DNA from: an uncultured Bacteroides sp.
Lineage (GTDB): Bacteria; Bacteroidota; Bacteroidia; Bacteroidales; Bacteroidaceae
Direction of reading: 5' to 3'
NCBI GenBank assembly: GCA_947074295.1
Contig: CAMTPC010000016.1
Span: 1 to 39,652, forward strand
DNA length: 39,652 bases
The position numbers and the translations under genes are program-made. A model generated the notes under the pieces. It did no database searches, was not told the DNA's origin, and worked only from the letters and a program-made list of their open reading frames with translations. This document shows, one piece after another, positions 3,453 through 29,065 of this stretch (the stretch's first letter is position 1; every line of letters begins with the position of its first letter).

Positions 3453-3495
3453 ATATAGTGAGTACGTATTAAAATGCTATACGTCCTCACTATAT
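3453..3495. repeat. Inverted repeat enclosing the promoter of the SusC1 operon
   Basis: The arms are 3453-3467 (ATATAGTGAGTACGT) and 3481-3495 (ACGTCCTCACTATAT): 14 of 15 bases pair around a 13-base loop. The -35-like GAGTAC lies in the left arm and the -10-like CGTC in the right arm. It may be the terminator of the GH2 gene (T-rich bases follow), an operator, or both. Confidence 0.7.
3460..3485 (+). promoter_or_regulatory. ECF-type promoter P1 (GAGTAC-N16-CGTC)
   Basis: GAGTAC at 3460-3465, 16-nt spacer, CGTC at 3482-3485; the ATG of the next gene is 45 nt further on. It is one of seven copies with identical spacing in this window and heads the isomerase-SusC1-SusD1 operon. Confidence 0.75.
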
Positions 3496-3530
3496 ACTTT
3501 TACGCCTTTAGGATTAACTAGAATCCAGAC

Positions 3531-4442
3531 ATGAAAAACAAGAACTGTAATAATTGTTATTTAATAATATGTTTTTTACTATCATTGCTATCTGTAGAAA
3601 ACGTCATAGCATCCAACGTAGCAGCGTCGAAATCTTCTGACAATTCACAAGATTATAAAATAGCTGTATGCGATTGGATGATTTTAAAACGCCAAAAGAT
3701 CGGTGTTTTCCAACTTGCCAATGAGCTGGGCTGCAATGGTATCGAGCTTGATATGGGTAGTCTTGGTACACGTGATTCGTTCGACAATAAGCTTCGTGAA
3801 CAACATTTTCAACAACTTTTCAAACAAAAATCTTCTGAATACAACATTGAGATTGCTTCTATAGCGATGTCTGGTTTTTATGGACAGTCGTTCGTGGAAA
3901 GAAGTAATTATATAGCATTGGTACAAGACTGCCTTAATACAATGGAGGTGATGAATGTATCAGTCGCTTTTTTGCCATTGGGCACAGGATGTGATTTGCA
4001 GAAAAATCCAGAAGTTCGTCCCGAGCTAGTAAAAAGACTTAAGGAAATAGGTGATATGGCGGCAGCTAGAGGTAAAGTGATAGGAATTGAAACTTCGCTT
4101 TCCGCAGCAGATGAAGTGAAATTGCTCAAAGAAATAGATTCGCCAGGTATCAAAATCTACTTTAAGTTTCAGAATGCTTTAGAAAACAACAGAAACCTTT
4201 ATAAAGAATTGCGCATTTTAGGCCGCGATCGAATTTGTCAAATTCATTGCACCGATACTGATGGGGTGACATTACGAAATAATGAAAGGATTGACATGCA
4301 AAAAGTCAAGAAAACATTAAATCGCATGCGGTGGACTGGTTGGCTAGTAGTGGAACGGTCGCGTGATAAAGATGATGTTCGAAATGTCAAAAAGAACTAT
4401 GGAGACAATGTAGAATATCTAAAAACAGTATTTCAGAAATAA
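3531..4442 (+). CDS. Exported sugar phosphate isomerase/epimerase-like TIM barrel protein
   Basis: 303 residues. The N-terminus is hydrophobic (about 9-28, YLIICFLLSLLSVENVIAS) and reads as a signal peptide. The rest matches the xylose isomerase-like/AP endonuclease 2 TIM-barrel fold: ELGCNGIELDMGSLG, IEIASIAMSGFYG, KVIGIETS, ICQIHCTDTDG and GWLVVERSRD are the usual strand-end segments, with Glu and His residues placed like metal ligands. Cytoplasmic members isomerise or epimerise sugars or inositols; exported Bacteroidales homologues are common in PULs and mostly uncharacterised. It is the first gene of a unit running into SusC1 (25 nt gap) and SusD1, behind promoter P1. The ATG start is supported by the signal peptide and the 45-nt distance from P1. 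The reaction and substrate are unknown. Confidence 0.8.
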   Translation: MKNKNCNNCYLIICFLLSLLSVENVIASNVAASKSSDNSQDYKIAVCDWMILKRQKIGVFQLANELGCNGIELDMGSLGTRDSFDNKLREQHFQQLFKQKSSEYNIEIASIAMSGFYGQSFVERSNYIALVQDCLNTMEVMNVSVAFLPLGTGCDLQKNPEVRPELVKRLKEIGDMAAARGKVIGIETSLSAADEVKLLKEIDSPGIKIYFKFQNALENNRNLYKELRILGRDRICQIHCTDTDGVTLRNNERIDMQKVKKTLNRMRWTGWLVVERSRDKDDVRNVKKNYGDNVEYLKTVFQK

Positions 4443-4467
4443 TAATTTGCCATTAATATTTAATTCT

Positions 4468-7400
4468 ATGAGTCAGAAAATAAGTAAAAATCGATTTACG
4501 CATGATACCAAAATGCGTAAATCTCTTTGTGCTGCTATGATTTTGTGCTCGTGTCTTATCGGTGCGCCAACAACAGTGATGGCGGCTGAAGATGTGACAA
4601 CGATACAAACCATTAATCAGCAGATTACCGTGAAAGGTACGGTAGTCGAACCCAATGGAGAACCCGTGATTGGTGCTAGTGTGAAGGTAGAAGGTGGCTC
4701 TCTGGGTACTATCACCGATCTGGATGGTAATTTTACGCTCTCAGTACCAGTCAACGCTAAACTAATTGTATCGTTTGTGGGATACCAAACCCAAGTAGTT
4801 CATGCTAAATCGGGTACACACCTACGTATTATACTGCAGGAGGATTCTAAAGTCTTGGATGAAGTCGTAGTGGTAGGATATGGAGCTGTGAAACGTGCCA
4901 ATCTTACTGGTGCCGTATCGAGTGTTAAAATGGACGAACTTGACGATATACCTGCTACAAACTTAACTTCAGTGCTAATGGGTACGATGGCAGGTGTGAC
5001 TGTTGGTGAATCAACAGGTAACCCCATTGCCGATGCTTCAATAAAGATTCGTACAAGTGGATCTTGGAACTCTGAACCTCCCTTGTATGTAATTGATGGT
5101 TTCATACGTGAGGCATCAGATTTTAACTTGCTTGATGCTTCCGAAATAGATAATATCTCTGTATTGAAAGATGCTTCAGCTGCCGTTTATGGTGTGCGTG
5201 GTGCGGGTGGTGTAATATTGGTTACTACAAAGAAAGGTAGCGAAGGTAAGACTACTATCAATTACTCAGGTTCAGTCGGCTTCTCTGACGGACTTTCTAT
5301 GCCCAAGATGATGTCGGCCTACCAACAAGCGTCTGCTTTAAATGATTTGTGGCGCGAAGAGGTATATAGTGGTTTGGGTGATTCGAGCAACTATAACTTC
5401 TTCTCAAACGATGAGTTAAATGATATGCAGGGTGTTGGCTATAATTGGCTAGATCAAGGATGGAAAACTGCTCTAAATACCCGTCATACATTAAACGTAA
5501 GCGGCGGATCTGATAAAGTGCGCTATTTTATTGGTGGATCTTATACTTTTGCCGATGGTAACTTCGCCGATCTTAATGCCAATCGTTTCAATGTACGTAT
5601 GGGCTTGGATGTGAAATTCACACAGAATTTACGTGGTTCATTTAATATGAGCTATGCAACAAAAAGCACTTCGATGCCTTTGAATAATAAGGATAAGGAG
5701 CCTCAGTTAATGTATGGTACATTTAGTGACTTAGCTCGTATGCCACAATGGATTCCTGCTTATATTGATGGTATGCCTGTTGGTAATGGTATGGACTCAT
5801 CGGATACGCATCCATTGGCTATTTTCGAAAGCGGATCTTCTAAAAAGAAACGCGATGATAACACTTCGATGAGCGCTAAGTTTGATTATGACCTGCCATG
5901 GGTAAAGGGATTGACAGTTAGTCTATCTGCTAATTATGCTCGCACTGGTGCTACTGGTCGTAATATTTATCGCCCTTATACAGTTTACAATTTTGAAAGT
6001 ATCCAATATCAAAATGCCGATGGTACTTACTATGATGGTCGTTTGACTAACAACACAGTTGCTAGCACTACAACTTTGAATAACGGTCAAAGCTATTATG
6101 ATAGTTCAGATTTCAGTTATTCTTATCAGATTAATCCGCAAGTAAACTATAACGTAAAGATTGGTGCCAATAACCTTTCGGCAATGTATGTATTCGAGGT
6201 AGCTGAGTCGAACTCTAATGTTTTGAGTATTACCGCACAAGATGTAGTGATTGACAATGTGAATTCGCTTCAAGGATTTAATACAAACAATTTGACAGGT
6301 ACATCATCTTATCAACCTTTGTCGCGTCGTTTATCTCATATCGGTCGTGTTAACTACTCGTATGCTGATCGCTATTTGTTTGAAGGAACATTGCGCTATG
6401 AAGGGTCAACGAACTTTGCTCCGAAACACCGCTGGGGTTTATTCTATGCTCTATCAGGAAGCTGGAGAATTTCTGAAGAAGTTTGGTTTAGAGAAAATGT
6501 TCGTGGTATCGAGAACTTAAAACTACGTGCAAGTTATGGTCGTATAGGTAATGATAAGGCTGTTCTTGGACAGTGGAGACAATCTTATGGCTTTGGATCG
6601 GGTAATTTATTGTTAGGTGGTGGAAACTCTCAGACAATTCTTGAACCTAATTTAAGTGGTTTGGTAGCCTTGAACTCTACATGGGAGAAGACAGATAGTT
6701 ATAACGTAGGTATTGACTTGATGTTGAATAATGGCTTCTCTTTTGAAGGAGATTATTTCTTTAAACACACATTCGATATCTTGGATGATGCTAAAAGCAC
6801 CTTCCCACAATCGGCCGGTATCTCAGGAAGCACACCTCGTATCAACTACGGTGCACAAAATGCTTGGGGTTTTGAGTTTGCTTTAGGCTATAGGAAACAA
6901 ATCAATCGCGATTGGTCGGTTAATGCAAAGGGTAACTTCTCTTTCTCTCGTAGTAAAGTGTTGAAGAAATATCAAAATCCTGGTATCATCGGTACATGGC
7001 AGGATGAGGAAAACCGTATTCGCGGCGGTGAAGTAGGTTATAAAGTGTGGAAGGGTGCCAATGGTAAAGGTGATGGTATGGCTCGTTCATGGCAAGATGT
7101 AAATGACTATATTGATTATTTGGCTGCGAATACTGCATCTGGTAACAAAGAAGACATTAACGTTTTGGGTTTGAGCTGGAATCAACTTCGTCCAGGTATG
7201 TTGATGTATCAAGATTTGGGAACTACTGTAAACAACCAGAGTCCTGATGGTATCATCAATTCAAGTGGTGATAACTGTATCATTAGCAAATATGATAGCG
7301 CACCCTACAATTATAGCTTTAACTTAGGTTTCAACTGGAGAGGATTATCTGTATCAGCATTGTTTACTGGACAGTTTGGTAATGATGTGGTATTTGATAA

Positions 7401-7812
7401 AGGATTCTATACAACCGCTTCTGGTGGTGGTCGTACAGGAGATTTCCTTTCTATCCGTTCAAATCAACTAAGTGAATGGTATGGCAACTATGCTACCTCC
7501 AATGAAGATGGTACGCTAGTTAATGCCAATGCAAAATATCCTCGTTTAGATAAGAACTCACTTCGAGGTGAACGTTCGGACTTCTGGATGCGTGATGGTC
7601 ACTCATTGCGTTTGCGTTCATTGAATATTTCCTATAACCTACCAAGTGGAATGTTGGCGAAAGCTAACATCGGTTCGTGTCGTGTATTCTTTACCGCGAA
7701 TAACTTATGGACAATCATCAATCCTTTCGATTATAAAGACGCTTATGTTGGATACTGGAGTGACTATCCTCAGATTCGTACATTTAACTTTGGTGTAAAC
7801 ATTGGATTTTAA
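4468..7812 (+). CDS. SusC1: SusC/RagA-type TonB-dependent outer-membrane transporter
   Basis: 1114 residues from the ATG at 4468; an in-frame TTG at 4447 is less likely because it only lengthens a polar leader. A signal peptide (about 1-40) is followed by a carboxypeptidase-regulatory-like beta domain (about 53-125, TVKGTVVEPNGEPVIGASV), the SusC signature DEVVVVGYG (131-139), the plug (about 145-255, with VLKDASAAVYGVRGAGGVILVTTKKG) and a large beta-barrel ending in FNFGVNIGF, with the terminal Phe typical of outer-membrane barrels. No STN signalling domain lies before the regulatory-like domain. It should import oligosaccharides, presumably pectic ones, with SusD1 as lid, powered by TonB. 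SusD1 follows after 15 nt. Confidence 0.96.
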   Translation: MSQKISKNRFTHDTKMRKSLCAAMILCSCLIGAPTTVMAAEDVTTIQTINQQITVKGTVVEPNGEPVIGASVKVEGGSLGTITDLDGNFTLSVPVNAKLIVSFVGYQTQVVHAKSGTHLRIILQEDSKVLDEVVVVGYGAVKRANLTGAVSSVKMDELDDIPATNLTSVLMGTMAGVTVGESTGNPIADASIKIRTSGSWNSEPPLYVIDGFIREASDFNLLDASEIDNISVLKDASAAVYGVRGAGGVILVTTKKGSEGKTTINYSGSVGFSDGLSMPKMMSAYQQASALNDLWREEVYSGLGDSSNYNFFSNDELNDMQGVGYNWLDQGWKTALNTRHTLNVSGGSDKVRYFIGGSYTFADGNFADLNANRFNVRMGLDVKFTQNLRGSFNMSYATKSTSMPLNNKDKEPQLMYGTFSDLARMPQWIPAYIDGMPVGNGMDSSDTHPLAIFESGSSKKKRDDNTSMSAKFDYDLPWVKGLTVSLSANYARTGATGRNIYRPYTVYNFESIQYQNADGTYYDGRLTNNTVASTTTLNNGQSYYDSSDFSYSYQINPQVNYNVKIGANNLSAMYVFEVAESNSNVLSITAQDVVIDNVNSLQGFNTNNLTGTSSYQPLSRRLSHIGRVNYSYADRYLFEGTLRYEGSTNFAPKHRWGLFYALSGSWRISEEVWFRENVRGIENLKLRASYGRIGNDKAVLGQWRQSYGFGSGNLLLGGGNSQTILEPNLSGLVALNSTWEKTDSYNVGIDLMLNNGFSFEGDYFFKHTFDILDDAKSTFPQSAGISGSTPRINYGAQNAWGFEFALGYRKQINRDWSVNAKGNFSFSRSKVLKKYQNPGIIGTWQDEENRIRGGEVGYKVWKGANGKGDGMARSWQDVNDYIDYLAANTASGNKEDINVLGLSWNQLRPGMLMYQDLGTTVNNQSPDGIINSSGDNCIISKYDSAPYNYSFNLGFNWRGLSVSALFTGQFGNDVVFDKGFYTTASGGGRTGDFLSIRSNQLSEWYGNYATSNEDGTLVNANAKYPRLDKNSLRGERSDFWMRDGHSLRLRSLNISYNLPSGMLAKANIGSCRVFFTANNLWTIINPFDYKDAYVGYWSDYPQIRTFNFGVNIGF

Positions 7813-9802: not shown

Positions 9803-9828
9803 GAGTACAAAATAAAAAGTCATTCGTC
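9803..9828 (+). promoter_or_regulatory. ECF-type promoter P2 (GAGTAC-N16-CGTC)
   Basis: GAGTAC at 9803-9808 and CGTC at 9825-9828, 43 nt before the ATG at 9872. A terminator just upstream makes this the start of a new unit. Confidence 0.75.
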
Positions 9829-12789: not shown

Positions 12790-12843
12790 AAGTGTTTTGC
12801 TTTGTTTTGCGCTGACTTTAAGAGTACAACAAAGCAAACACTT
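12790..12843. repeat. Inverted repeat after the CE8-PL1 gene, overlapping promoter P3
   Basis: Left arm 12790-12806 (AAGTGTTTTGCTTTGTT), right arm 12828-12843 (AACAAAGCAAACACTT): 16 bp with one bulged T and a 21-nt loop. No T-run follows on the plus strand. The right arm is exactly the spacer between GAGTAC and CGTC of P3. It may be a weak terminator of the upstream gene or an operator. Confidence 0.65.
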
Positions 12844-12847
12844 CGTC
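12822..12847 (+). promoter_or_regulatory. ECF-type promoter P3 (GAGTAC-N16-CGTC)
   Basis: GAGTAC at 12822-12827 and CGTC at 12844-12847, 43 nt before the ATG at 12891. Confidence 0.75.
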
Positions 12848-14189: not shown

Positions 14190-14215
14190 GATTACAAAGT
14201 TTGTTGCTGTTCGTC
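14190..14215 (+). promoter_or_regulatory. ECF-type promoter P4 (GATTAC-N16-CGTC)
   Basis: GATTAC at 14190-14195 and CGTC at 14212-14215, 41 nt before the ATG at 14257, directly after a strong terminator. Confidence 0.75.
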
Positions 14216-16145: not shown

Positions 16146-16153
16146 TAAATTTG
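16146..16153 (+). promoter_or_regulatory. Possible housekeeping -7 element (TAAATTTG) before the DUF3826 gene
   Basis: An exact TAnnTTTG match 27 nt before the ATG at 16181. No TTTG lies at the expected -33 position, so this is tentative. Confidence 0.3.
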
Positions 16154-16180: not shown

Positions 16181-16861
16181 ATGAATACTCTACCCAGTTA
16201 TAAATATCTCTTCTTAGCATTCCTGTTATCATTTTCTACATTATCCATACAAGCTGTCGAACTAGATTCTATTAATCGTGATGCCGAATATGTTTCAGCT
16301 ATCCTGAAGCGTTCACAAAAGATCGTGGATGGGATGAATATCCAAGAAAAACAAGTGTATAATGAGGTTGTAACAATATTAGCCAACAGGTACTTTCAGT
16401 TAAATGATATATACCAGTCGCGTGACAGCAAGATAATAAAGGCAAAAGAAGAATTGACAGGTGAAGCCAAAGATATGGCTATTCATTCAGCTCGATCTGA
16501 AGCTGACGCAGCGCTTTATCGTTCACATTTTGCTTTTCCTGCTGCTTTGTCGCTCTATCTTGACAATGAACAGATTGATTTTATAAAAGACGGTATGACT
16601 TTCAATGTGGTCAGTGTCACTTATACAGCTTATCAAGATATGATACCAACACTCACAGAAGAAGAAAAAGCACAAATGTATGTATGGCTTGTGGAGGCTC
16701 GCGAATTTGCAATGGATGCCGAAAGTTCTAACAAGAAACACGAAACATTCAAAAAATACAAAGGTAGAATCAATAATTACCTATCGGCGCGGGGCTATGA
16801 TTTGACACAAGAACGCGAAGCATGGGCAAAAAGGGTTGCTGCACGTGGCGAAACTTTATAA
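16181..16861 (+). CDS. DUF3826 family secreted protein
   Basis: 226 residues from the ATG at 16181, with a hydrophobic signal (about 7-24, KYLFLAFLLSFSTLSIQA); an in-frame TTG at 16151 falls within the possible -7 element. The mature part is helical and charged: IVDGMNIQEKQVYNEVVTILANRYFQLNDIYQSRD, EADAALYRSHFAFPAALSLYL, and the VWLVEAREFAMDAESSNKKHETFKKYKGRINNYLSARGYDL segment that I recognise as DUF3826. DUF3826 proteins are found almost only in Bacteroidetes pectin and other PULs and have no established activity. Gene context (between two PL1-type or accessory units) says it acts outside the cytoplasm during pectin use. A degenerate GAGTAC site lies at 16029-16034, but without a proper CGTC. 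Confidence 0.8.
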   Translation: MNTLPSYKYLFLAFLLSFSTLSIQAVELDSINRDAEYVSAILKRSQKIVDGMNIQEKQVYNEVVTILANRYFQLNDIYQSRDSKIIKAKEELTGEAKDMAIHSARSEADAALYRSHFAFPAALSLYLDNEQIDFIKDGMTFNVVSVTYTAYQDMIPTLTEEEKAQMYVWLVEAREFAMDAESSNKKHETFKKYKGRINNYLSARGYDLTQEREAWAKRVAARGETL

Positions 16862-16911: not shown

Positions 16912-16943
16912 AAAATAGTGTATTTCAGTGAGTACACTATTTT
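16912..16943. repeat. Inverted repeat after DUF3826, overlapping promoter P5
   Basis: Perfect 11-bp arms AAAATAGTGTA (16912-16922) and TACACTATTTT (16933-16943), 10-nt loop. It can end transcription from the left (A-rich before, T-rich end), while its right arm shares TAC with the -35-like GAGTAC of P5. Confidence 0.7.
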
Positions 16944-16955
16944 GAAGGCTTCGTC
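16930..16955 (+). promoter_or_regulatory. ECF-type promoter P5 (GAGTAC-N16-CGTC)
   Basis: GAGTAC at 16930-16935 and CGTC at 16952-16955, 48 nt before the ATG at 17004. Bases 16930-16941 are the same as in P7 (GAGTACACTATT). Confidence 0.75.
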
Positions 16956-18997: not shown

Positions 18998-21900
18998 ATG
19001 AAGAAATTGACCGTACTCCTTTTTGCTATACTGTTATCGATAACAGCTTACTGCTTCAATGCCAATATGATAGTAGAGCACTATTCGGTCGATGACGGCT
19101 TGCCCAATAATGTTGTAAATTGTTCTTTAAAAGATAAGGATGGATTTCTATGGTTTGGTACATGGTATGGGCTTTGTCGTTTCGATGGCGTAAAGTTTCG
19201 TACATACAATAAATTAGAGGATGAAGAATCAGCTCTACCTCCGCGAAAAATTCAAAGAATTGTCGAAGATAAAAATGGCTATATCTGGGTGAAAACCATA
19301 GATAGAAAGCTCTATGTCTTTAATAAAGAGAAAGAGACTTTCCACGCTGTGTTCGATGATATGAAAAACTATTCTGAAAATATTCAGGTCATCAAGCTCC
19401 AATCGACATTTGATGGGGATATATTGCTTCTCACCCGTGATAAGAATCTATTATTGGCACAGACAAACGAGGTGGGTAGTGTATCGATAAAACTCATTTT
19501 TGATTCGAAAGATGAAGTATCGCCTAGTACATATCGCATGAAAAACAATGTTTTAAGCGAGACGCGTGAGTATATATCATGGGTAGGTGTGGATTATAAA
19601 GTCTTGGCATTCAAGAAAGGCGAGTCATTGGCAGAGCGACCTGCCAATTATATCTTAAATAAGATGAATGTGACAAGCGATGCCAATTTTACATCAGTCT
19701 ATGCTGACGGAAAAAAGATGTGGGTAGGCGAAAATACGGGTATATTCTACTCCATAGATACACAAACTGGATCGGTGGATAAGTTTGTGCTTTCGGAGCT
19801 TAGAGGTAGTATCACTAGCTTGATGGTGACTCCTACGGGCTATGTTTATTTAGCACTGGCCAATAATGGCATTTATGAATATGACCTTAAAGAGCGTGTT
19901 CTTCAGAAGATCAATATCGATATCGACGATAGGCTAGTGGCCAATATCTATATGGATAAATATGATAAGATGTGGTTTCATGAGAATGAGAAAGCCATTG
20001 TCTATTACGATCCACAAAATAGAATCACAAAACGTTATCCCTTTAGTATCACTGGAAAAATAGGCCTTTTTCATGTCGAGGATGTTGGTGAAAGAGGATT
20101 ATTTTTCTTATCATCTACAGGCGAAGCGTGGATGTTTGATCGCGAAAATCTGAAAATGATCAAGATCAATGAAATCAAACAGATAGCAAATGCCGAAACA
20201 GAGCAGAGATTTTTCCATCTATTCCAAGATGGCGATGGTGGTATCTGGTTTTCATCGGCTACTCAAGGCGTGTATCAGTTAAATTTCCCGCGTAAGCAGT
20301 TTCGACTATTTGTTCCTCCTTTGCAGAATGTATCCCAACTGAATGAAGACTTAGGAATCAGAGCTTTGTATCAGGCCGAAAATGGTGATTTATGGGTTGG
20401 GACACGCAGTAAATACATTTATAAGCTAGACAAGGATGCCAATGTAAAACAGGTTTTTACGCCGGACACACACAATACGGGTGCCATCTATCATATCATG
20501 GAAGATCGCAAAGGCAATATGTGGTTTGCAACTAAAGGAAATGGGCTTATACGTGCCACGCCCGACCCTAAAGCAAAGGATGGTTATCGTTTCGAGCATT
20601 TTAAGCATAATATGAATAATCCTACAACTATCAGCGGCAATGATGTTTATTATGCCTTCCAAGATAGTAGGGAACGTATTTGGGTGGGTTTGCTCGATGG
20701 AGGTTTAAATTTACTTGTAGAGGAAAATGGAAAAGTAAGTTTCCAGAATATAAACAATGGATTCAAAAACTATCCAGGCTATGGTCTGTATATGGAGGTG
20801 CGAAATATATTGGAGGACGAAAAAGGACGTATCTGGGTAGGGACTATGGATGGACTGATGTCGTTTGATAGTAATTTCGACACGGTAGATCAGATTAAAT
20901 TTGAGACATACAGACAGAAAAACAGAAGAAGTTTTATCGACAGTGATGTATATACACTTTTCAAAGACAGCTACTCGCAAATATGGGTGTCTATGTTTGG
21001 AGGTGGGTTAAGCAAGCTAGTTGGGTATAATGTAGAAACGCATATGCCTGAATTTAAGTCGTTTGGATTGCGCGAGGGCTTGAACAATGATGTAATCATG
21101 TCGATGGTCGAAGATAATAATGATCATATTTGGTTTGCTACGGAGAATGGCTTATCGCACTATGACTTGAATAACGAACGGATTAGAAACTTTGATAAGT
21201 ATGATGGTTTTCCCGCTGTGGTCAACGAAGATAATGCTGCAATATTGACACAGGATGGAGATATCTGGATCGGGTGCAAGGAGGGTGTCTTGATTTTTAC
21301 ACCCGACAAACTGGAAAGCCAGCGCAAGAAATATGAAACATTCATAGTAGGTTGCCAAATATCCAATATTGATATACAAAACTTCACCGAAAAACCGATC
21401 ATCACTAAAGCTATCCCCTATGTGGATGCAATAGTGCTGAAGCACAATCAATCTATGTTTACCTTTGAGTTTGCAGCGCTCAACTTCAGTAATCAAAATA
21501 GAGTGTCTTATAAATATATACTTGAAGGCTATGAGAAAGAATGGCATTATAACGGCAAAAACCGTATTGCCTCATACACTAATGTGCCTCCTGGGAAATA
21601 TACATTTATAGTACAAACCATAGATGAGGCCAATCCAGACCTGATATCTTCGCGTGCCATGACTGTGACTATCTTGCCTCCTTGGTGGGCAAGTCCTTGG
21701 GCTTATGTTGTTTATACCATTCTTATAATTATAATTCTTGCTTTGGTCGTGAAATTCTCTCTCTTCATGATAAAGGTGAAGAATGATGTTTATATCGAAC
21801 AAAAACTATCGGAGCTGAAGATTAAGTTCTTTACCAATATTTCGCACGAACTACGTACTCCTTTGACACTTATCACTGGCCCTATTCAAGAATTGAAGGA

Positions 21901-23413
21901 GAAAGAGAATCTGACAGAAAAAGGAAAGCAGTACGTAGACTTGATGGAACGCAATATCATGCAAATGGTGCAATTGGTGAATCAGATTCTGGATTTCAGG
22001 AAAATACAGAATGGTAAGATGCGACTGCATGTATCATTGATTGATTTTAATGAACTTTTGGCTTCCTTCGAAAAGGAGTTTCGTGTGTTGGCCAATGAAA
22101 ACGAAATCAGTTTTCAGTTCCAATTGCCCGAAGAGGGGATCAAAGTGTGGGCGGATAAAGAAAAAATCGGTATTGTGGTACGCAATATCTTGTCGAATGC
22201 CTTTAAATTCACATCTTCTGGAGGAAGTGTGTTTGTGTCGGTAGGATTGAATGATGATAGCTCTCGTTGTATCATCCGAATCGAAGACGATGGTGTGGGA
22301 ATACCTCAAAATAAGCTTCCTGAAATATTTGATCGTTTCGCACAAGCTGATAATGCACGCAATAGCTACTATCAAGGGTCGGGTATCGGACTGGCTCTTT
22401 CAAAAGAGATCATCAATCTGCATCATGGACAATTGTATGTAGAAAGTACAGAGGGCAATGGTTCTACATTCGTGATAGAGCTGCAGATGAATAAAGAACA
22501 TTATAGATCGTCGGATGTGGATTTCTATATGGGCGAGAATAGTGAAGAAGAGATTACCACTAATGAGGCAATGGAAAACACCGATTCCGAACTGTTAGAG
22601 GATGATATTACTCCCGACTCATCTTTACCCAATCTATTGATCGTGGAGGACAATAAAGATCTATGCAATATGCTTAAATTGCAGTTGGAGGACCATTTTA
22701 ATATCTATACGGCCAATGATGGGGCTGAAGGATTGAAAAAAATACATCTGCATCATCCCGATATTGTGGTGACAGACCAAATGATGCCTAACATGGATGG
22801 ACTTGATATGCTGAAACGAATAAGAAATGATTTCCAAATCAGTCATATACCCGTAATTATTTTGACGGCTAAGGGCAACGATGAGGCAAAGACAAAGGCG
22901 ATCACTATGGGAGCCAATGCCTATATCATAAAGCCTTTCAGCAAAGATTATCTAATGGCAAGGGTGGAACAATTGCTTAATGAGCGCAAGCATTTTCAAG
23001 AACGCGTGTGGAAATCCAATCATGAAGTGGCTGAAGCAGAAAGCGCAGAAGATCATTATGAGCAATTCTTGGTGAAGAAAGATGTGCAGTTTATTGAAAA
23101 GATTCACCAAGTGATAGAAGGAAATCTGGAAAACAGTGACTTTAATATAGATACCATAGCATCGACTATCGGTCTTAGTCGTTCGGCATTTTTCAAGAAA
23201 CTCAAAGGATTGACAGGCTTTGCACCTGTAGACTTGGTGAAAGAGATTCGTTTGAACAAATCTATTGATCTGATAAAGAACTCCGATATGACGATATCCG
23301 AGATTGCTTTCGCAGTGGGTTTCAAAGATTCGGGTTACTTTAGTAAATGTTTCCGAAAGAAATATAACCAGTCGCCACGCGAATATATGAATGAGTGGAG
23401 AAAAGTAAAATAA
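18998..23413 (+). CDS. Hybrid two-component system sensor-regulator (HTCS)
   Basis: 1471 residues holding a full signalling chain. A signal peptide (about 1-19) precedes a periplasmic sensor of beta-propeller repeats (about 25-780; repeated DGFLWFGT, GYIWVKT, GRIWVGT, DHIWFAT blades) and a Y_Y_Y domain (about 815-885). One transmembrane helix follows (about 901-923), then a histidine kinase with His950 in FFTNISHELRTPL, an N box near NILSNAFKF and GSGIGLAL. The receiver (about 1213-1325) has Glu1217/Asp1218, phospho-acceptor Asp1260 (VTDQMMP) and Lys1312. An AraC-type DNA-binding domain (about 1368-1471) ends in GYFSKCFRKKYNQSPREYMNEW. HTCSs sense PUL-derived oligosaccharides in the periplasm and activate the locus. 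All catalytic residues are present. Its targets here are unknown, because most units carry an ECF-type promoter. Confidence 0.97.
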   Translation: MKKLTVLLFAILLSITAYCFNANMIVEHYSVDDGLPNNVVNCSLKDKDGFLWFGTWYGLCRFDGVKFRTYNKLEDEESALPPRKIQRIVEDKNGYIWVKTIDRKLYVFNKEKETFHAVFDDMKNYSENIQVIKLQSTFDGDILLLTRDKNLLLAQTNEVGSVSIKLIFDSKDEVSPSTYRMKNNVLSETREYISWVGVDYKVLAFKKGESLAERPANYILNKMNVTSDANFTSVYADGKKMWVGENTGIFYSIDTQTGSVDKFVLSELRGSITSLMVTPTGYVYLALANNGIYEYDLKERVLQKINIDIDDRLVANIYMDKYDKMWFHENEKAIVYYDPQNRITKRYPFSITGKIGLFHVEDVGERGLFFLSSTGEAWMFDRENLKMIKINEIKQIANAETEQRFFHLFQDGDGGIWFSSATQGVYQLNFPRKQFRLFVPPLQNVSQLNEDLGIRALYQAENGDLWVGTRSKYIYKLDKDANVKQVFTPDTHNTGAIYHIMEDRKGNMWFATKGNGLIRATPDPKAKDGYRFEHFKHNMNNPTTISGNDVYYAFQDSRERIWVGLLDGGLNLLVEENGKVSFQNINNGFKNYPGYGLYMEVRNILEDEKGRIWVGTMDGLMSFDSNFDTVDQIKFETYRQKNRRSFIDSDVYTLFKDSYSQIWVSMFGGGLSKLVGYNVETHMPEFKSFGLREGLNNDVIMSMVEDNNDHIWFATENGLSHYDLNNERIRNFDKYDGFPAVVNEDNAAILTQDGDIWIGCKEGVLIFTPDKLESQRKKYETFIVGCQISNIDIQNFTEKPIITKAIPYVDAIVLKHNQSMFTFEFAALNFSNQNRVSYKYILEGYEKEWHYNGKNRIASYTNVPPGKYTFIVQTIDEANPDLISSRAMTVTILPPWWASPWAYVVYTILIIIILALVVKFSLFMIKVKNDVYIEQKLSELKIKFFTNISHELRTPLTLITGPIQELKEKENLTEKGKQYVDLMERNIMQMVQLVNQILDFRKIQNGKMRLHVSLIDFNELLASFEKEFRVLANENEISFQFQLPEEGIKVWADKEKIGIVVRNILSNAFKFTSSGGSVFVSVGLNDDSSRCIIRIEDDGVGIPQNKLPEIFDRFAQADNARNSYYQGSGIGLALSKEIINLHHGQLYVESTEGNGSTFVIELQMNKEHYRSSDVDFYMGENSEEEITTNEAMENTDSELLEDDITPDSSLPNLLIVEDNKDLCNMLKLQLEDHFNIYTANDGAEGLKKIHLHHPDIVVTDQMMPNMDGLDMLKRIRNDFQISHIPVIILTAKGNDEAKTKAITMGANAYIIKPFSKDYLMARVEQLLNERKHFQERVWKSNHEVAEAESAEDHYEQFLVKKDVQFIEKIHQVIEGNLENSDFNIDTIASTIGLSRSAFFKKLKGLTGFAPVDLVKEIRLNKSIDLIKNSDMTISEIAFAVGFKDSGYFSKCFRKKYNQSPREYMNEWRKVK

Positions 23414-23417: not shown

Positions 23418-23443
23418 GATTACAAATCACTTTTCCATTCGTC
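23418..23443 (+). promoter_or_regulatory. ECF-type promoter P6 (GATTAC-N16-CGTC)
   Basis: GATTAC at 23418-23423 and CGTC at 23440-23443, 39 nt before the ATG at 23483. It begins 4 nt after the HTCS stop codon, so this unit need not depend on HTCS read-through. Confidence 0.75.
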
Positions 23444-23482: not shown

Positions 23483-25168
23483 ATGAATACTATTCAAAAA
23501 GTGATGATCGCAGCTTTTTTTGCTGCCACAGCACAAACTATTTCGGCACAATATCCTACGATACCCGACTCAGTGAAGTCGAGAGGTAAAATGCAGGAAG
23601 CTGAGTTTGAACGAAAATCAGATGAGGCATGGGAAAAGGCACTTCCTATAGTCTTGGATGAGGCTTTGAAGGGAAGACCCTATAAACCGTGGGCTTCTAA
23701 ACCTGAAGATTTGATTCAAGCCAATATCCCGGCATTTCCTGGAGCGGAAGGTGGGGGCGCTTATACACCTGGTGGACGTGGCGGAAAAGTGCTAGTAGTG
23801 ACTTCGCTCGAGGATAGTGGACCAGGTACGCTACGCGAAGCTTGTGAAACAGGAGGGGCGCGCATTGTCGTGTTCAATGTAGCGGGTGTGATCAATCTAA
23901 AAAGCCCAATAAATATTCGTGCTCCCTATATCACTATCGCTGGTCAGACGGCTCCAGGTGACGGTGTTTGTGTGACAGGAGAATCATTCCTATTAGATAC
24001 ACACGATATTGTGATTCGCCACATGCGTTTTCGCCGTGGTGCGGTAGATGTAGCTTTCCGCGATGATGCTTTGGGCGGTAATTGTGTGGGTAATGTGATA
24101 TTGGATCACTGCTCGGCAAGCTGGGGTCTAGACGAAGTGATGTCTATCTATCGACATGTATATGATCGTGATTCTACAGGGCGTGGCTTGAAACTTCCTA
24201 CTGTGAATGTGACTATCCAAAATTCTATCTTCTCGGAAGGACTAGATACCTATAATCATGCTTTTGGCGCAACTATAGGTGGGCATAACAGTATGTTTGC
24301 TCGTAACCTTTTTGCCTCTAATATCAGTCGTAATTGTTCCATCGGTATGGATGGAGATTTCAACTTGGTGAACAATGTGACTTATAATTGGTGGAATCGC
24401 TCTGTGGATGGTGGTGATGAGAATAGCCGCTTGAATATCATTAACAACTACTACAAACCGGGTCCTGTAACTCCTGTGGACAAACCTATCGCTCATCGTA
24501 TAGTTAAGCCTGAAGCTAGTCGCGATAAGAATAAACCCGATGTTTTCGGTAAGGCTTATGTGGATGGAAATATTGTTGTAGGCAACGAACGCGTGACAAA
24601 GAATAACTGGGATGGGGGAGTACAGGTATATAATGAACCCAATGCAGATCGTTTTATGGACCAAATAAAGATGGATCAACCTTTTGATATGCCTCATGTG
24701 ACTATAATGGACGCAAAAACAGCCTATAATTTTGTGATGGATAATGTAGGTGCCAACTTCCCGAAACGTGATGCAGTGGATGCACGTGTGATAAAGACAG
24801 TACGCACGGGTAAGGCTATCTATTCTGCAGATGCCCAACCTTATGAAACTCCTTATGTGAAACGCCGATTACCGGCTGATTCATACAAACTGGGTATTAT
24901 TACTCATATCGATCAAGTAGGTGGTTTGCCCGAATACAATGGAGCACCTTATGCGGATACTGATGGCGATGGTATGCCTGATGCATGGGAAATAAAATAT
25001 GGTCTTAATCCAAATGATCCTTCAGATGCTATTCTTGATATGAATGGAGATGGCTATACAAACATAGAAAAATATATTAATGGTATAGATCCTACTATAA
25101 AAGTGGATTGGACAGATGTGAATAATAATCATGATACATTGGCAAAGCGCAAAAGCTTGCTTCAATAA
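23483..25168 (+). CDS. Pectate lyase, PL1 family, secreted (paralogue of the gene at 14257)
   Basis: 561 residues with signal peptide MNTIQKVMIAAFFAATAQTISA. It follows the plan of the lyase at 14257: a helical leader (EFERKSDEAWEKALPIVLDEALKGRPYKPWASKPEDL), FPGAEGGGAYTPGGRGGKV (about 86-104), the IAGQTAPGDGVCVTGESF motif (about 152-168), LDHCSASWGLDEVMSIYRH (about 207-225), FNLVNNVTYNWWNRS, and a calcium-loop-like end (DTDGDGMPDAWEIKYGLNPNDPSD, about 493-515). Expected activity is beta-elimination of homogalacturonan. Differences from its paralogue in the 225-235 loop and around 320-400 may tune methylation or chain-length preference. The beta-helix/DUF6298-like gene follows after 9 nt, so they form an operon behind P6. 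Confidence 0.92.
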   Translation: MNTIQKVMIAAFFAATAQTISAQYPTIPDSVKSRGKMQEAEFERKSDEAWEKALPIVLDEALKGRPYKPWASKPEDLIQANIPAFPGAEGGGAYTPGGRGGKVLVVTSLEDSGPGTLREACETGGARIVVFNVAGVINLKSPINIRAPYITIAGQTAPGDGVCVTGESFLLDTHDIVIRHMRFRRGAVDVAFRDDALGGNCVGNVILDHCSASWGLDEVMSIYRHVYDRDSTGRGLKLPTVNVTIQNSIFSEGLDTYNHAFGATIGGHNSMFARNLFASNISRNCSIGMDGDFNLVNNVTYNWWNRSVDGGDENSRLNIINNYYKPGPVTPVDKPIAHRIVKPEASRDKNKPDVFGKAYVDGNIVVGNERVTKNNWDGGVQVYNEPNADRFMDQIKMDQPFDMPHVTIMDAKTAYNFVMDNVGANFPKRDAVDARVIKTVRTGKAIYSADAQPYETPYVKRRLPADSYKLGIITHIDQVGGLPEYNGAPYADTDGDGMPDAWEIKYGLNPNDPSDAILDMNGDGYTNIEKYINGIDPTIKVDWTDVNNNHDTLAKRKSLLQ

Positions 25169-25177: not shown

Positions 25178-28100
25178 ATGAATAGAAGAATGAGAAATAA
25201 AATAGGCTTGATAGCCTTATTAAGTCTAGGGTTTGTGCATGGATTTGCACAAACCCTAGCTTTAGAGGTGAAGAATGATTCTATAATCTATAATAGGGAT
25301 GAGAAAGGTAATCAAGTAATTGACTTCTCTTATTGTGGTTATAGAAGTTCTGATGTGGATATACCCACCGTAAAGAATATGGTGGAGGTATCTTGGCAAG
25401 AAGGCGATAACTCGGCACGAATTCAGAAAGCGATTGACTATGTGTCGTCTTTAAAACTACAGAAAGATGGTTTTAGAGGAACGGTGTTGCTAGACGAAGG
25501 ATGTTTCGAACTAAATGAAAGTCTACGACTATCGACAAGTGGTGTGATAGTAAGAGGTAAAAGCAATACAAAGACTATACTGCAAAAAAATGGCGTTGAT
25601 AGAGGAGCGATTGTCTACATAGAGGGAGGGCGAATGATTAATCTTGAAAATGTTATCTTTGTTGAATCATCCTATGTACCTTTAAATAGTATGACGCTAG
25701 AATTGGCCAACACCAATGGATTGGAAGTTGGTGAGCGTATTAGAGTGGTACGACCATCTACAAAGGAATGGATAGAATCTATTGGTTGCCATATTTATGG
25801 TGGTGGCATCAGCGCATTGGGCTGGAAGCCTGGAGATACTGATCTGACGTGGGATAGAACAATCATCGCGATAGAGGGAAATGCTATCAAGATAGATGCA
25901 CCACTGACGATGGCTCTGGATAAGACATGGGGAGATAGCTATATAATTCCCTATGACTGGAAGGATCGAGTTGCGAATGTCGGAATAGAGAATTTGACGA
26001 TTGTTTCAGCTTACGATACAAATTATCCGAAAGATGAAGAGCACGCATGGACTGGTATTTCGATAGATAACGCCGAGAACTGCTGGGTGCGAAAAGTTGA
26101 CTTTAAGAATCTTGCTGGTAGTGCGGTATTCATTCAATCATTTGCCTCTAAAATCACAGTAGAAGATTGTATAGCTACAGATCCGGTTTCGGAAGTGGGT
26201 GGTATGCGTCGAGAAACGTTTCTTACTATGGGGCAGCAAACGCTTTTTCAACGATGCTATTCGGAAGGAGGTATCCATGATTTTGCAGTGGGCTATAATG
26301 CCGCAGGTCCTAATGCTTTTGTGCAATGTGAGGCGGTAAACACGAATGGCTTCAGTGGCGCTATCGGTGCACTAGCACCTGGAATACTTTTTGATATTGT
26401 CAATATAGAAGGAGATAACCTTGTTTTTAAGAATTTGGGGCAAAACAAGAATGGGGCAGGATGGAATACTGCTAATAGCCTTTTTTGGCAATGCACTGCA
26501 GCCGAAATAGAATGCTACTCACCTAGTGATGATGCAGTGAACAGGGCTTATGGCAATTGGGCGCAATTCTCTGGAAATGGCGAATGGGCGCAGTCGAATA
26601 ACCATATTCAGCCTCGTAGCTTCTTCTATGCACAGTTGGGTCAACGTCTTAGAATGGATATGACTGAACGTGCAAGACTTTTACCTCTTTCAACTAGCAG
26701 TACTAGTAGCCCTACTATAGAGCAAGCCGGGATCATGGCACAGCAATCCAAGGAACCTCGTCAGCAATTAGTTGACTGGGTTCGAAATGCTTCGTTAGAT
26801 TTAGCTAATCACCAATCTAAACTTTTGCAAGTAGATGATATAAAAGCCAAGAATGCGAATAGCACAACAAGAACTACTCCTGTATTTGCGGTGGAAAATG
26901 GAAAATTACTTGCTGATGGTGTACTGCTAACAGGTGGAAAACATGATGTGCCATGGTGGAATGGTAATCTAAAAAACACCTATCTGCCTAAATCTAAAAT
27001 GCACATCACTCGCTTTGTGCCAGGACGCGAAGGAAAGGGTTTAACTGACCGTATAGATTCGGTCGTAAACTATATGGCGGAAAACGATATACTGATATTA
27101 GATCACAACTACGGCTTGTGGTACGATCGTAGACGCGACGATCATCAACGTGTGAAAAGACGCGATGGAGATGCCTGGGGTCCTTTTTATGAACAGCCAT
27201 TTGCACGTAGTAGTGAAGGTGTAGCATGGGATGGATTGAGCAAATATGATCTAACGCGACCTAACGCTTGGTATTGGAGTCGATTAAAGGAATTTGCGCA
27301 GAAAGGAGCGCAGAATGGACAACTTCTTTTTCATGAAAACTATTTCCAGCATAACATATTGGAGGCAGGGGCACACTGGGTGGATTCGCCTTGGCGCTCT
27401 GCAAATAATATTAATAACACGGATTTCTTAGAACCTGTAAACTTTAGTGGCGATAAACGTATTTTTGTTGCGGACGAATTTTATGACATTAATCACCCCG
27501 TACGACGTGAACTACATCGTCAATACATTCATCAATGCTTGGATAATTTTGCGGATTCACCTAATGTGATACAACTTATTAGCGCTGAATATACTGGGCC
27601 TTTGCATTTCGTGGAGTTTTGGCTTGACGTCATAAAGGAGTGGGAACAGGAAACTGGAAAAAATACTTTGGTTGCATTGAGTACAACTAAGGATGTACAA
27701 GACTCTATCCTTAACAACCCCTCATATGTGGATTTAATTGACATCATTGATATTCGCTACTGGCATTATAATACAGATGGACTTTATGCGCCTGAAGGTG
27801 GAAAGAATCTTGCACCTCGACAACATGCGCGTAAAATGAAAGTAGGCAAAGTGACTTATGGAGAAACATACAAAGCAGTATCGGAATATACGAACCGTTT
27901 CCCGAATAAAAGTGTCACCTTCTTTGCACAAAATTACCCTAATAATGCTTGGGCAATTTTTATGGCAGGTGGTTCTTGCCCGCAAATTCCAATCAAAAAT
28001 AAGGCGTTTTTGAAGGCTGCAGCTCAGATGAAGCCGCAAATAACCTCAAATACAGAGTATGAATTATTGGTAAATTCTGATATTGGATGTATCATTTATT

Positions 28101-28276
28101 CCCATTATGCATCAATTATTCCATTGTCTTTAATGGCGGGAGAATACAGATTAAACTATGTAAACCCCTCTACTGGTGAAATGGATGTTGTCTATAAAAG
28201 ACTTAAAATCAATGGTGTATATGATTTAGATACATCGAAATATGGAAATGGTATTTATTGGTTGGAAAGAATATAA
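25178..28276 (+). CDS. Secreted beta-helix plus DUF6298-like two-domain protein, putative pectin-active enzyme
   Basis: 1032 residues, or 1028 from the second Met at 25190; the signal peptide ends near HGFAQ. Residues about 60-500 read as a right-handed parallel beta-helix (GVIVRGKSNTKTIL, NVGIENLTIVSAY, NAENCWVRKVDFKNLAGSAVFI, KITVEDCIATDP), the fold of pectate lyases and polygalacturonases. Residues about 575-960 resemble the DUF6298/DUF4955 type of C-terminal domain and look TIM-barrel-like: PWWNGNLKNTYLPKSKMHITRFVPGREG, DILILDHNYGLWYDRRRDDHQRV, LLFHENYFQHNI, LISAEYTGPLHFVEFWLDVIKEW. Glu in FHENYF and Glu in SAEYTG are candidate catalytic residues. No activity is established that I can name. 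It is co-transcribed with the PL1 lyase 9 nt upstream. A perfect 14-bp inverted repeat lies within the signal-peptide codons. Confidence 0.8.
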   Translation: MNRRMRNKIGLIALLSLGFVHGFAQTLALEVKNDSIIYNRDEKGNQVIDFSYCGYRSSDVDIPTVKNMVEVSWQEGDNSARIQKAIDYVSSLKLQKDGFRGTVLLDEGCFELNESLRLSTSGVIVRGKSNTKTILQKNGVDRGAIVYIEGGRMINLENVIFVESSYVPLNSMTLELANTNGLEVGERIRVVRPSTKEWIESIGCHIYGGGISALGWKPGDTDLTWDRTIIAIEGNAIKIDAPLTMALDKTWGDSYIIPYDWKDRVANVGIENLTIVSAYDTNYPKDEEHAWTGISIDNAENCWVRKVDFKNLAGSAVFIQSFASKITVEDCIATDPVSEVGGMRRETFLTMGQQTLFQRCYSEGGIHDFAVGYNAAGPNAFVQCEAVNTNGFSGAIGALAPGILFDIVNIEGDNLVFKNLGQNKNGAGWNTANSLFWQCTAAEIECYSPSDDAVNRAYGNWAQFSGNGEWAQSNNHIQPRSFFYAQLGQRLRMDMTERARLLPLSTSSTSSPTIEQAGIMAQQSKEPRQQLVDWVRNASLDLANHQSKLLQVDDIKAKNANSTTRTTPVFAVENGKLLADGVLLTGGKHDVPWWNGNLKNTYLPKSKMHITRFVPGREGKGLTDRIDSVVNYMAENDILILDHNYGLWYDRRRDDHQRVKRRDGDAWGPFYEQPFARSSEGVAWDGLSKYDLTRPNAWYWSRLKEFAQKGAQNGQLLFHENYFQHNILEAGAHWVDSPWRSANNINNTDFLEPVNFSGDKRIFVADEFYDINHPVRRELHRQYIHQCLDNFADSPNVIQLISAEYTGPLHFVEFWLDVIKEWEQETGKNTLVALSTTKDVQDSILNNPSYVDLIDIIDIRYWHYNTDGLYAPEGGKNLAPRQHARKMKVGKVTYGETYKAVSEYTNRFPNKSVTFFAQNYPNNAWAIFMAGGSCPQIPIKNKAFLKAAAQMKPQITSNTEYELLVNSDIGCIIYSHYASIIPLSLMAGEYRLNYVNPSTGEMDVVYKRLKINGVYDLDTSKYGNGIYWLERI
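25226..25259. repeat. Perfect inverted repeat inside the signal-peptide coding region
   Basis: CTAGGGTTTGTGCA (25226-25239) and TGCACAAACCCTAG (25246-25259): 14 perfect bp with a 6-nt loop, 48 nt after the start codon. No T-run follows. Confidence 0.85.
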
Positions 28277-28306
28277 CTGTGAGTAATCACAGGTTTTACT
28301 TCTTTT
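28277..28306 (+). terminator. Probable terminator after the beta-helix gene
   Basis: CTGTGA (28277-28282) / TCACAG (28287-28292) with a 4-nt loop, followed by GTTTTACTTCTTTT. The short stem makes it moderate. Confidence 0.6.
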
Positions 28307-28426
28307 AAATATAGAGTCAATAGCAATGAAGAAAATGTAATTTTAAATAAGATGTGTTCTACAACAGCTTATCTATAATTTCTGTTTCTGGATCAAAAAT
28401 TACCTAACGTAAACGGGCTAACTCTC

Positions 28427-28434
28427 TACTTTTG
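28427..28434 (+). promoter_or_regulatory. Housekeeping -7 element (TACTTTTG) before the ECF sigma gene
   Basis: An exact TAnnTTTG match 28 nt before the ATG at 28463, with no clear TTTG at -33. No GA(G/T)TAC-N16-CGTC element precedes this gene, so the sigma factor is probably not driven by its own promoter type. Confidence 0.4.
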
Positions 28435-28462
28435 TTTCATCAAAACTATTAAATGTACTGTG

Positions 28463-29017
28463 ATGAACAAATATTCAAACGATAGAGTAGTTAGCCTGAT
28501 TACAGATTTTCAGTCCGGAGATGTTACTGCATTTTCTACATTGTATGATATGCATATTAATATATTATTCAATTATGGTAGCAAACTCACAACTGATAAA
28601 GAATTGCTTAAAGACTGTATTCATGATGTCTTCGTTAAGCTATACTCTAAAAAGAATGAATTGGATATTATCAATAACTTAAAATCTTACCTTTTCATTT
28701 CACTTAAAAATAAAATCTTCGATGAATATCGCAAAAGAATGTATCTCTCTGAAACTGCAGTGGATGAGATGGGCACAGTGTGTGATAGCGAAGATTTGGA
28801 AAATAGCTATTTGGCTAAAGAGCAAATACAAATAGAAAATATGATGGTGAAACAATTATTAGTTCAGCTTTCACCCCGTCAGCGTGAAGTTCTCACACTT
28901 TATTATTTAGAAGAGAAAAAATATGAAGATATCTGTGTCATAATGAACATGAATTATCAATCTGTACGCAACTTAATGCATAGAAGCCTTACCAAATTGA
29001 GAAGTTTGGTGAGTTAG
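28463..29017 (+). CDS. ECF-type RNA polymerase sigma factor
   Basis: 184 residues from the ATG at 28463; a GTG directly before it is also in frame. Region 2 spans about 16-92 (SGDVTAFSTLYDM, LLKDCIHDVFVKLY, LKSYLFISLKNKIFDEYRKR). Region 4 spans about 125-180 (LLVQLSPRQREVLTLYYLEEKKYEDICVIMNMNYQSVRNLMHRSLTKLR), with the helix-turn-helix that contacts the -35 element. There is no region 3, as expected for ECF factors. It belongs to the Bacteroidetes group normally paired with a FecR-type anti-sigma factor and a SusC-like receptor. The next gene is an anti-sigma-like stub 89 nt downstream. I infer that it reads the GA(G/T)TAC-N16-CGTC promoters of this locus. Confidence 0.95.
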   Translation: MNKYSNDRVVSLITDFQSGDVTAFSTLYDMHINILFNYGSKLTTDKELLKDCIHDVFVKLYSKKNELDIINNLKSYLFISLKNKIFDEYRKRMYLSETAVDEMGTVCDSEDLENSYLAKEQIQIENMMVKQLLVQLSPRQREVLTLYYLEEKKYEDICVIMNMNYQSVRNLMHRSLTKLRSLVS

Positions 29018-29039
29018 TCCCACTTTTAATCTTATTATT

Positions 29040-29065
29040 GAGTACACTATTATTTTACTACCGTC
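29040..29065 (+). promoter_or_regulatory. ECF-type promoter P7 (GAGTAC-N16-CGTC)
   Basis: GAGTAC at 29040-29045 and CGTC at 29062-29065, 41 nt before the ATG at 29107. It lies between the sigma gene and the anti-sigma stub and would drive stub, SusC2 and SusD2. Confidence 0.75.

What the first reader, a model, noticed from the sequence alone, without database searches (positions are those of the whole stretch)
3460..29065. Seven-copy promoter element GA(G/T)TAC-N16-CGTC heading most PUL transcription units: a probable ECF sigma regulon
Seen: the element occurs at 3460, 9803, 12822, 14190 (GATTAC), 16930, 23418 (GATTAC) and 29040. The spacer is always exactly 16 nt, the strand is always the coding strand, and CGTC is always 39-48 nt before the chosen start codon. 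Six of seven have A after TAC, and most have TT before CGTC. Each copy begins a unit bounded by a terminator or regulator gene: isomerase-SusC1-SusD1, CE8-PL1, unknown secreted protein, PL1, second unknown secreted protein, PL1-beta-helix, and anti-sigma stub-SusC2-SusD2. My rough base-composition estimate is about 0.1 chance hits in the window on both strands. Known: many ECF sigma factors read a -35 containing AC and a -10 of CGTC. Inference: the ECF factor at 28463 controls the pectin locus as one regulon. PUL control is usually credited to HTCS or SusR-type proteins, so a multi-promoter ECF regulon with a readable consensus is unusual.
Basis: partly seen in the sequence, partly recalled or inferred. 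Interest (0 to 1): 0.95.

Follow-up and report, generated by a model that had tools for sequence, protein, structure and literature searches.

The report
Sensor-driven pectin sigma-factor promoter regulon
In this Bacteroides genome one promoter-like DNA pattern stands before seven groups of likely pectin-digestion genes and before seven more genes elsewhere, and a neighbouring sigma-factor gene that travels with the pattern across related species likely switches them all on, itself predicted to be switched on by a carbohydrate-sensing protein.

Summary
The seven-copy element is real: seven exact + strand hits against 0.07 expected. It behaves as the promoter of the ECF sigma factor at 28463. 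In 47 loci holding the sigma orthologue it occurs 76 times forward and never reversed, mostly at two fixed places: after the sensor gene and after the sigma gene. Element exceeds reversed control in 41 of 42 genomes with the sigma orthologue and in 27 of 116 without. The regulon reaches further: 7 of 12 hits outside the window stand correctly before genes such as GH141, GH95, GH43, pectate lyase and SusC. The sigma gene's own promoter carries a Crp-type palindrome, a 21-bp direct repeat and a housekeeping box, conserved in 48 loci; the repeat is nearly unique genome-wide, so the neighbouring hybrid two-component sensor (HTCS) probably drives sigma. And sigma's partner is a free-standing 74-87 aa FecR cytoplasmic domain without a membrane span. 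The chain sensor, sigma, fourteen promoters is inferred; no start-site, binding or mutant data were available.

The parts
3460..3485 (+). element 1, before isomerase-like (3531-4442), SusC1 (4447-7812), SusD1 (7828-9684)
9803..9828 (+). element 2, before CE8-PL1 (start 9872, end 12781)
12822..12847 (+). element 3, before unknown secreted protein 1 (12891-14099)
14190..14215 (+). element 4, before PL1a (start 14257, end 15981) and probably DUF3826 (16151-16861)
   Evidence: PelZ profile match below its cut-off
16930..16955 (+). element 5, before unknown secreted protein 2 (17004-18608)
18998..23413 (+). HTCS sensor-regulator: Reg_prop, Y_Y_Y, HisKA, HATPase_c, Response_reg, HTH_18; proposed activator of the sigma gene
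   Evidence: domains; linkage, co-occurrence, single repeat; the activator role is inferred
23418..23443 (+). element 6, directly after the HTCS gene, before PL1b (23483-25168) and DUF6298 (25178-28276)
28277..28292 (+). terminator-like hairpin between DUF6298 and the sigma promoter (weak: such hits are near the shuffled number)
28355..28366 (+). palindrome TGTTCTACAACA of the sigma promoter, resembling the published Crp (BT4338) consensus
28370..28404 (+). 21-bp-period direct repeat (half-sites 28370-28382 and 28391-28404); proposed HTCS site
   Evidence: binder inferred
28427..28434 (+). TACTTTTG, matching the Bacteroidota housekeeping -7 box TAnnTTTG
   Evidence: consensus named in PMC9723704 passages
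28463..29017 (+). ECF sigma factor (regions 2 and 4)
29040..29065 (+). element 7, directly after the sigma gene, before stub, SusC2 and SusD2
29107..29343 (+). 78-aa membrane-free FecR-type cytoplasmic domain (stub), proposed sigma partner
29379..34591 (+). SusC2 (29379-32600; no STN signalling domain in the Pfam result) and SusD2 (32624-34591)

Best explanation
GAKTACA-N15-CGTC is likely the -35/-10 promoter of the ECF sigma factor at 28463, and that sigma factor is predicted to drive one pectin regulon of at least fourteen promoters, seven in this locus and seven elsewhere in the genome. The sigma gene itself has a housekeeping-type promoter with a Crp-type palindrome and a 21-bp direct repeat. 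The repeat is predicted to be the single target of the adjacent HTCS sensor, so the sensor would act on the whole regulon by making sigma. Sigma would then also transcribe its partner, a free-standing FecR cytoplasmic domain without a membrane span, closing a feedback loop whose sign (pro-sigma or anti-sigma) is not decided here. Shown: positions, conservation, co-occurrence, domain make-up. Inferred: who binds what, and the direction of each arrow.
For: Seven window sites against 0.07 expected. 47 orthologue loci: 76 forward, 0 reverse, controls 1 and 2; site after sigma in 41 of 46 loci with room, after the HTCS in 29 of 38. Element above reversed control in 41 of 42 sigma-plus against 27 of 116 sigma-minus genomes. 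7 of 12 outside hits correctly placed against 0 of 11 controls, before GH141, SusC, pectate lyase, GH95, GH43 and others. Residue 89 of sigma is Ser in 12 of 12 loci that have a CGTT site and in 0 of 32 with CGTC only. Sigma promoter block in 48 of 48 loci, period 21 bp, found at one mismatch or fewer before sigma in 14 of 14 sigma-plus genomes and once elsewhere. HTCS and sigma orthologues co-occur: 42 genomes each, 40 shared, of 158. Stub aligned with FecR N-termini: 98.5% probability, score 80.8 against at most 14.9 in 30 controls. PUL 2 of B. xylanisolvens, with four elements, is up on citrus pectin (PMC4769552 passages).
Against: No transcription start, binding or mutant data. Outside the window the raw hit count (12) is no higher than the control (11). 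4 of 47 loci have no exact element; 5 of 46 lack the sigma-3' site and 9 of 38 the HTCS-3' site (five of those nine are one base off by eye). 9 of 47 loci show no orthologous HTCS within the fetched flank, among them P. vulgatus (L068), although the repeat is kept. The residue 89 link follows one clade, and three of its 12 loci have CGTC as well. The statistics ignore relatedness. AlphaFold of the stub is moderate (pLDDT 74, pTM 0.46) and gave no structural match, and no PDB sequence relative was found.
Confidence: 0.8

Rival explanations
1. The element is the binding site of the HTCS, not a sigma promoter, and sigma is a bystander.
For: HTCS and sigma occur together in 40 of 42 genomes each, so presence alone hardly separates them; the element often lies right behind the HTCS gene.
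Against: HTCS sites are described as direct repeats about 21 bp apart (PMC3878776 passages); the element is not one, while the block before sigma is. The element has an ECF-like -35/-10 shape and lies 39-48 nt before starts. P. vulgatus and P. sartorii loci keep sigma and the element but show no HTCS in the flank. Base four of -10 changes with a sigma residue. Paralogous sigmas have GAGTAT or GAGTAG at the like place.
Confidence: 0.06
2. Several paralogous ECF sigmas of the cell read the same element, so there is no single dedicated sigma.
For: Paralogous sigma loci show a GAGTA core in 16 of 33 sigma-3' regions examined; overlapping ECF regulons are discussed for a flavobacterium (PMC9723704 passage).
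Against: The sixth base of those 16 is T in 10, G in 4, A in 1 and C in 1, the last (L142) without CGTC at the spacing. Sigma-minus genomes, many of which have several other ECF relatives, show no excess of the element.
Confidence: 0.08
3. The element works in the locus but sigma activity is set by trans-envelope FecR signalling from a FecR encoded elsewhere, as in ordinary ECF-controlled PULs.
For: Many paralogous sigma loci do encode a membrane-spanning FecR-type protein (28 compared), and another FecR could cross-talk.
Against: The partner gene directly after sigma is the membrane-free stub in the 31 loci and the window where it was extracted; SusC2 shows no STN domain; the conserved sigma promoter points to control by synthesis.
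Confidence: 0.1

Closest known systems
PUL ECF-sigma/anti-sigma systems of Bacteroides (FecI-FecR type, trans-envelope signalling)
   Same: ECF sigma in a PUL, promoter behind the sigma gene, FecR-type N-terminal domain, SusC/D downstream.
   Different: No membrane span or periplasmic part in the partner, no STN domain seen in SusC2, a many-promoter regulon reaching other contigs, and an HTCS in the same locus.
HTCS_Rgu-1 pectin regulon (BT4111/BT4124; PMC3878776 passages)
   Same: Pectin genes, an HTCS, a repeat period of 21 bp, and Crp sites reported for pectin genes.
   Different: There the direct repeats were predicted before the PUL operons; here a direct repeat of that period is found before sigma, and the operons carry an ECF-type element.
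PorXY-SigP of Porphyromonas gingivalis (PMC7712824 passages)
   Same: A two-component system upstream of an ECF sigma in Bacteroidota.
   Different: PorX is reported to bind SigP and not DNA; here the predicted link is transcription of the sigma gene.
SigW-1 (BT1817) of B. thetaiotaomicron (PMC12596196 passages)
   Same: An ECF sigma that acts on a PUL at a distance.
   Different: Its motif was reported as not significant and centres on TGTT; here the element is exact, conserved and repeated.
FecR, FoxR and FiuR N-terminal fragments (PMC9249621 passages)
   Same: Similar size: fragments of about 59 to 93 residues act on their sigma as pro-sigma; the FpvR fragment inhibits.
   Different: Those fragments come from proteolysis or engineering; the stub is encoded as such.

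Membership tests
ECF sigma factors | sigma-70 regions 2 and 4 without region 3, ECF superfamily profile | tested here: met
   Pfam regions 2 and 4; NCBIfam TIGR02937 87.5 bits over a cut-off of 42.9
TIGR02985 Sig70_bacteroi1 (Bacteroidota subfamily) | score over the curated cut-off | tested here: not met
   90.2 bits against 126.4, so it is not filed there although it is the best match listed
FecI-FecR trans-envelope signalling | cytoplasmic FecR N-terminal domain | tested here: met
   profile alignment 98.5%, score 80.8, shuffled at most 14.9; no structural confirmation
FecI-FecR trans-envelope signalling | membrane span and periplasmic domain in the partner | tested here: not met
   74-87 aa, highest 19-residue hydropathy 1.27, against 1.5-2.7 in the 28 paralogue proteins kept
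FecI-FecR trans-envelope signalling | outer-membrane receptor with N-terminal signalling (STN) domain | tested here: not met
   no STN domain in the Pfam results of SusC1 and SusC2
HTCS | periplasmic propeller sensor, kinase, receiver and AraC-type DNA-binding domain in one protein | tested here: met
HTCS | direct-repeat target site, period about 21 bp | tested here: met
   the repeat exists before sigma; that this HTCS binds it was not testable
HTCS_Rgu-1 regulon | 12-9-12 bp motif of BT4111/BT4124 before the operons | not tested
   the motif letters are in a supplement that was not available
ECF promoter | transcription start shortly after the -10 | not testable with these tools

The most novel reading that the evidence does not exclude
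A PUL control circuit in which trans-envelope FecR signalling has been dismantled: an HTCS sensor, together with the global Crp-type regulator, drives one ECF sigma gene; that sigma switches on a genome-wide pectin and rhamnogalacturonan-II regulon through a readable promoter; and a genetically encoded, 'already cut' FecR domain made from the sigma's own promoter tunes it. Paralogous sigmas appear to use the same GAGTAn core with another sixth base, which would give a readable promoter code for Bacteroidota PUL sigmas.
Probability: 0.6. Interest if true: 0.88.

Novelty: new variant of a known kind. Interest (0 to 1): 0.8.

Why it matters
Predicting ECF-controlled PUL promoters was called a challenging task that needs transcription start data (PMC3878776 passage). 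Here one is readable from sequence and predicts members in named, cultured species. In B. xylanisolvens XB1A it places four promoters in PUL 2, a pectin-induced PUL for which the authors identified no regulator (PMC4769552 passages), under a sigma factor about 255 kb away. It also offers a direct test of whether a natural FecR fragment helps or blocks its sigma.

Tried and rejected
Chance or repeat artefact: rejected for the window and for the relatives; accepted for G035, whose excess is largely one repeated sequence. A locus-only regulon: rejected by the distant members. Element as HTCS site: disfavoured (see rivals). Sigma read through from DUF6298 or directly self-activated: disfavoured by its own conserved promoter and hairpins in some relatives; the hairpin in the window is weak, and none of the forward hits listed lies within 3 kb before a sigma gene. 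Structural proof that the stub is a FecR domain: not obtained. Rfam found nothing in the window at gathering scores. Alignment A1 was wrongly specified and not used. Rows dropped: for, 28 of the 38 paralogue downstream ORFs were kept; four fell out by length (L115, L131, L138, L139) and six were left out by hand as unlike FecR at the N-terminus or unrelated (L035, L036, L038, L039, L041, L044). In one search, 44 of 48 sigmas carried a site and were compared. Literature: eight searches of an open-licence library listed no paper that I recognised as reporting this element, this sigma regulon or the stub; most subscription journals are missing. Ten papers were seen as passages only, none in full; passages of PMC10994844, PMC10766802 and PMC11501099 gave nothing on this element.
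Full report
What was checked. The pattern GAKTAC-N16-CGTC occurs seven times in the window, all on the + strand at the stated places; 100 shuffles gave a mean of 0.07 and never more than one. The units it heads are: isomerase-like, SusC1, SusD1; CE8-PL1; unknown 1; PL1a and probably DUF3826; unknown 2; PL1b with DUF6298; stub, SusC2, SusD2. GH2 with the gene before it, the HTCS and the sigma gene have no element directly in front.

Close relatives. Among 60 relatives searched the sigma protein has eight orthologues of 60-81% identity. In 40-kb stretches around them the element stands at orthologous places: G004 has six of the seven window sites (no exact copy before Unk1), and the element follows the HTCS gene in all seven relatives that have the HTCS in the stretch (G004, G001, G021, G012, G003, G026, G036); G009 showed no HTCS there. 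In G003 and G026 both sites read CGTT. The genus is taken as Bacteroides because contig lengths and coordinates of G001 and G179 equal those of B. faecis MAJ27 and B. xylanisolvens XB1A.

Named species. A scan of one genome per species kept the best 80 of 82 relatives; 47 have at least 50% identity and come from Bacteroides, Phocaeicola, Mediterranea, Paludibacter, Proteiniphilum, Fermentimonas and unnamed relatives, two from one genome. These 47 loci hold 76 forward and 0 reverse elements (CGTC or CGTT) in 842,805 bases, with 1 and 2 hits of the reversed control; 43 of 47 have at least one. Two places recur: directly after the sigma stop in 41 of 46 loci with room, window included (32 with spacer 16, nine with 17), and directly after the HTCS in 29 of 38. 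The consensus of 101 non-redundant sites is T-GAKTACAaA-N11-t-N-CGTC-TT.

Genome-wide test. Of 158 genomes of the genus, 42 carry the sigma orthologue (245 bits or more, next 161). Element minus reversed control is positive in 41 of these 42 and in 27 of the 116 others (sums 617 against 318, and 610 against 886; Mann-Whitney p 2e-17, not corrected for relatedness). The one exception, G003, has CGTT sites. G035 (sigma-minus) owes its excess largely to a repeated sequence. G160 (sigma-minus) has the HTCS with the element close behind it, 4.3 kb from a contig end, so its sigma may lie in a gap.

A trans regulon. In the window's own genome 7 of the 12 outside hits are intergenic with an ATG 40-61 nt downstream, against 0 of 11 reversed-control hits. 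With the window they lie on eight contigs. Their products match GH141, a SusC-type receptor, pectate lyase, GH95, GH43 and GH20b; one matches no Pfam family. The other five lie inside ORFs. In relatives the element stands before GH127, GH106, GH43, GH2, a SASA esterase, isomerase-like, DUF4992/4957/5123 and weakly GH20b-like proteins; two PL1-like ones had no Pfam match. GH141, GH106, GH127 and GH95 point to rhamnogalacturonan-II, from recall. In B. xylanisolvens XB1A the GAKTACA form has 13 hits against 0 in the control: five at 412-504 kb, four at 759-772 kb, four scattered and not examined. In the five other named genomes of that call hits exceed control: 13/1, 11/5, 13/3, 7/3, 7/3. The second XB1A group lies where gene content and a 3786-nt stretch without an ORF of 220 aa (754,280 to 758,066) match PUL 2 of PMC4769552, which is up on citrus pectin, is compared there to a B. 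thetaiotaomicron PUL up on RG-II, and had no identified regulator.

What drives sigma. Upstream of sigma, 48 of 48 loci hold TAnnTTTG. Before it lie a palindrome, ATGTTnTAaAaCAt in the consensus, which fits the Crp (BT4338) consensus of PMC3878776, and a direct repeat whose profile autocorrelation peaks at 21 bp (12.4; next 6.9), the average HTCS period in that paper. A 38-column matrix, trained on 33 non-redundant rows, scores 25.8 or more at all 48 and above 12 at only five other places in 882 kb (highest 17.0); column-shuffled matrices gave 0-4. In 20 whole genomes a 35-base pattern with at most one mismatch hits before sigma in 14 of 14 sigma-plus genomes, once elsewhere (G026), and not in the other six; with two mismatches the totals, 62 against 58, equal the control, and P. 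vulgatus has extra repeat copies. The HTCS orthologue is found in 42 of 158 genomes (three candidates scored in each), 40 of them sigma-plus; G009 and G100 have sigma only, G120 and G160 HTCS only. It lies upstream of sigma in 38 of 47 loci; a 39th hit, L073, is a different HTCS.

The partner. Where it was extracted (31 loci and the window) the gene after the element encodes 74-87 aa without a hydrophobic span; 16 loci without an exact N16 site were not read. In 28 paralogous sigma loci kept for comparison the downstream protein has 326-419 aa with its hydropathy peak at residue 93-141. Stub and FecR N-termini align at 98.5% probability, score 80.8, against at most 14.9 for 30 shuffled controls. 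A database search found 54 proteins of 74-99 aa, none with a Pfam domain; longer proteins are not candidates in that search. In E. coli and Pseudomonas, N-terminal FecR, FoxR and FiuR fragments of such size activate their sigma and that of FpvR inhibits (PMC9249621 passages). The stub looks like a built-in, already-cut FecR.

Who reads the element. Twelve loci have a CGTT site (three of them also CGTC). Sigma residue 89, in region 2.4 by position (recalled), is Ser in all 12 and in none of the 32 others with a site; they form one group of relatives, so this is suggestive only. Of 33 paralogue sigma-3' regions, 16 hold GAGTA, with sixth base T in 10, G in 4, A in 1, C in 1; not all have a -10 at the spacing (examples). 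So the sixth base may tell sigmas apart.

Verdict. New are the HTCS-to-sigma step, the membrane-free FecR domain and the reach of the regulon; the arrows are inferred and testable.

Noticed in passing
L092 (G036; also L027): In this species two tRNA-Val genes lie downstream of sigma where the element and stub stand in others; the stub seems lost while sigma and HTCS stay.
   Followed up: partly
G035, contigs C2, C105, C107, C111, C134, C136, C178, C210, C212, C223: A repeated sequence (about GAGTACACAGAGAGGGCGACTACGTC, 12 near-identical copies listed) mimics the element in a genome without the sigma orthologue; nature of the repeat unknown.
   Followed up: no
window 12599-12778 and 13923-14060: Type IX secretion sorting-tail matches at the ends of CE8-PL1 and unknown 1 (the second below cut-off); the genome has 34 such matches, 32 over cut-off, which is more than I would expect of gut Bacteroides (recall).
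   Followed up: partly
window 34748-35758: A uroporphyrinogen-decarboxylase-family protein follows SusD2; in P. vulgatus a protein that looks alike stands directly behind an element (L215). It may act on O-methyl sugars; guess.
   Followed up: no
window 1-813: The first gene is cut by the contig end; in relatives the homologous stretch continues upstream as an open frame.
   Followed up: no
G160 contig C15, G120 contig C55: HTCS orthologue without a sigma orthologue found; in both, contig ends are near, so an assembly gap is likely.
   Followed up: partly
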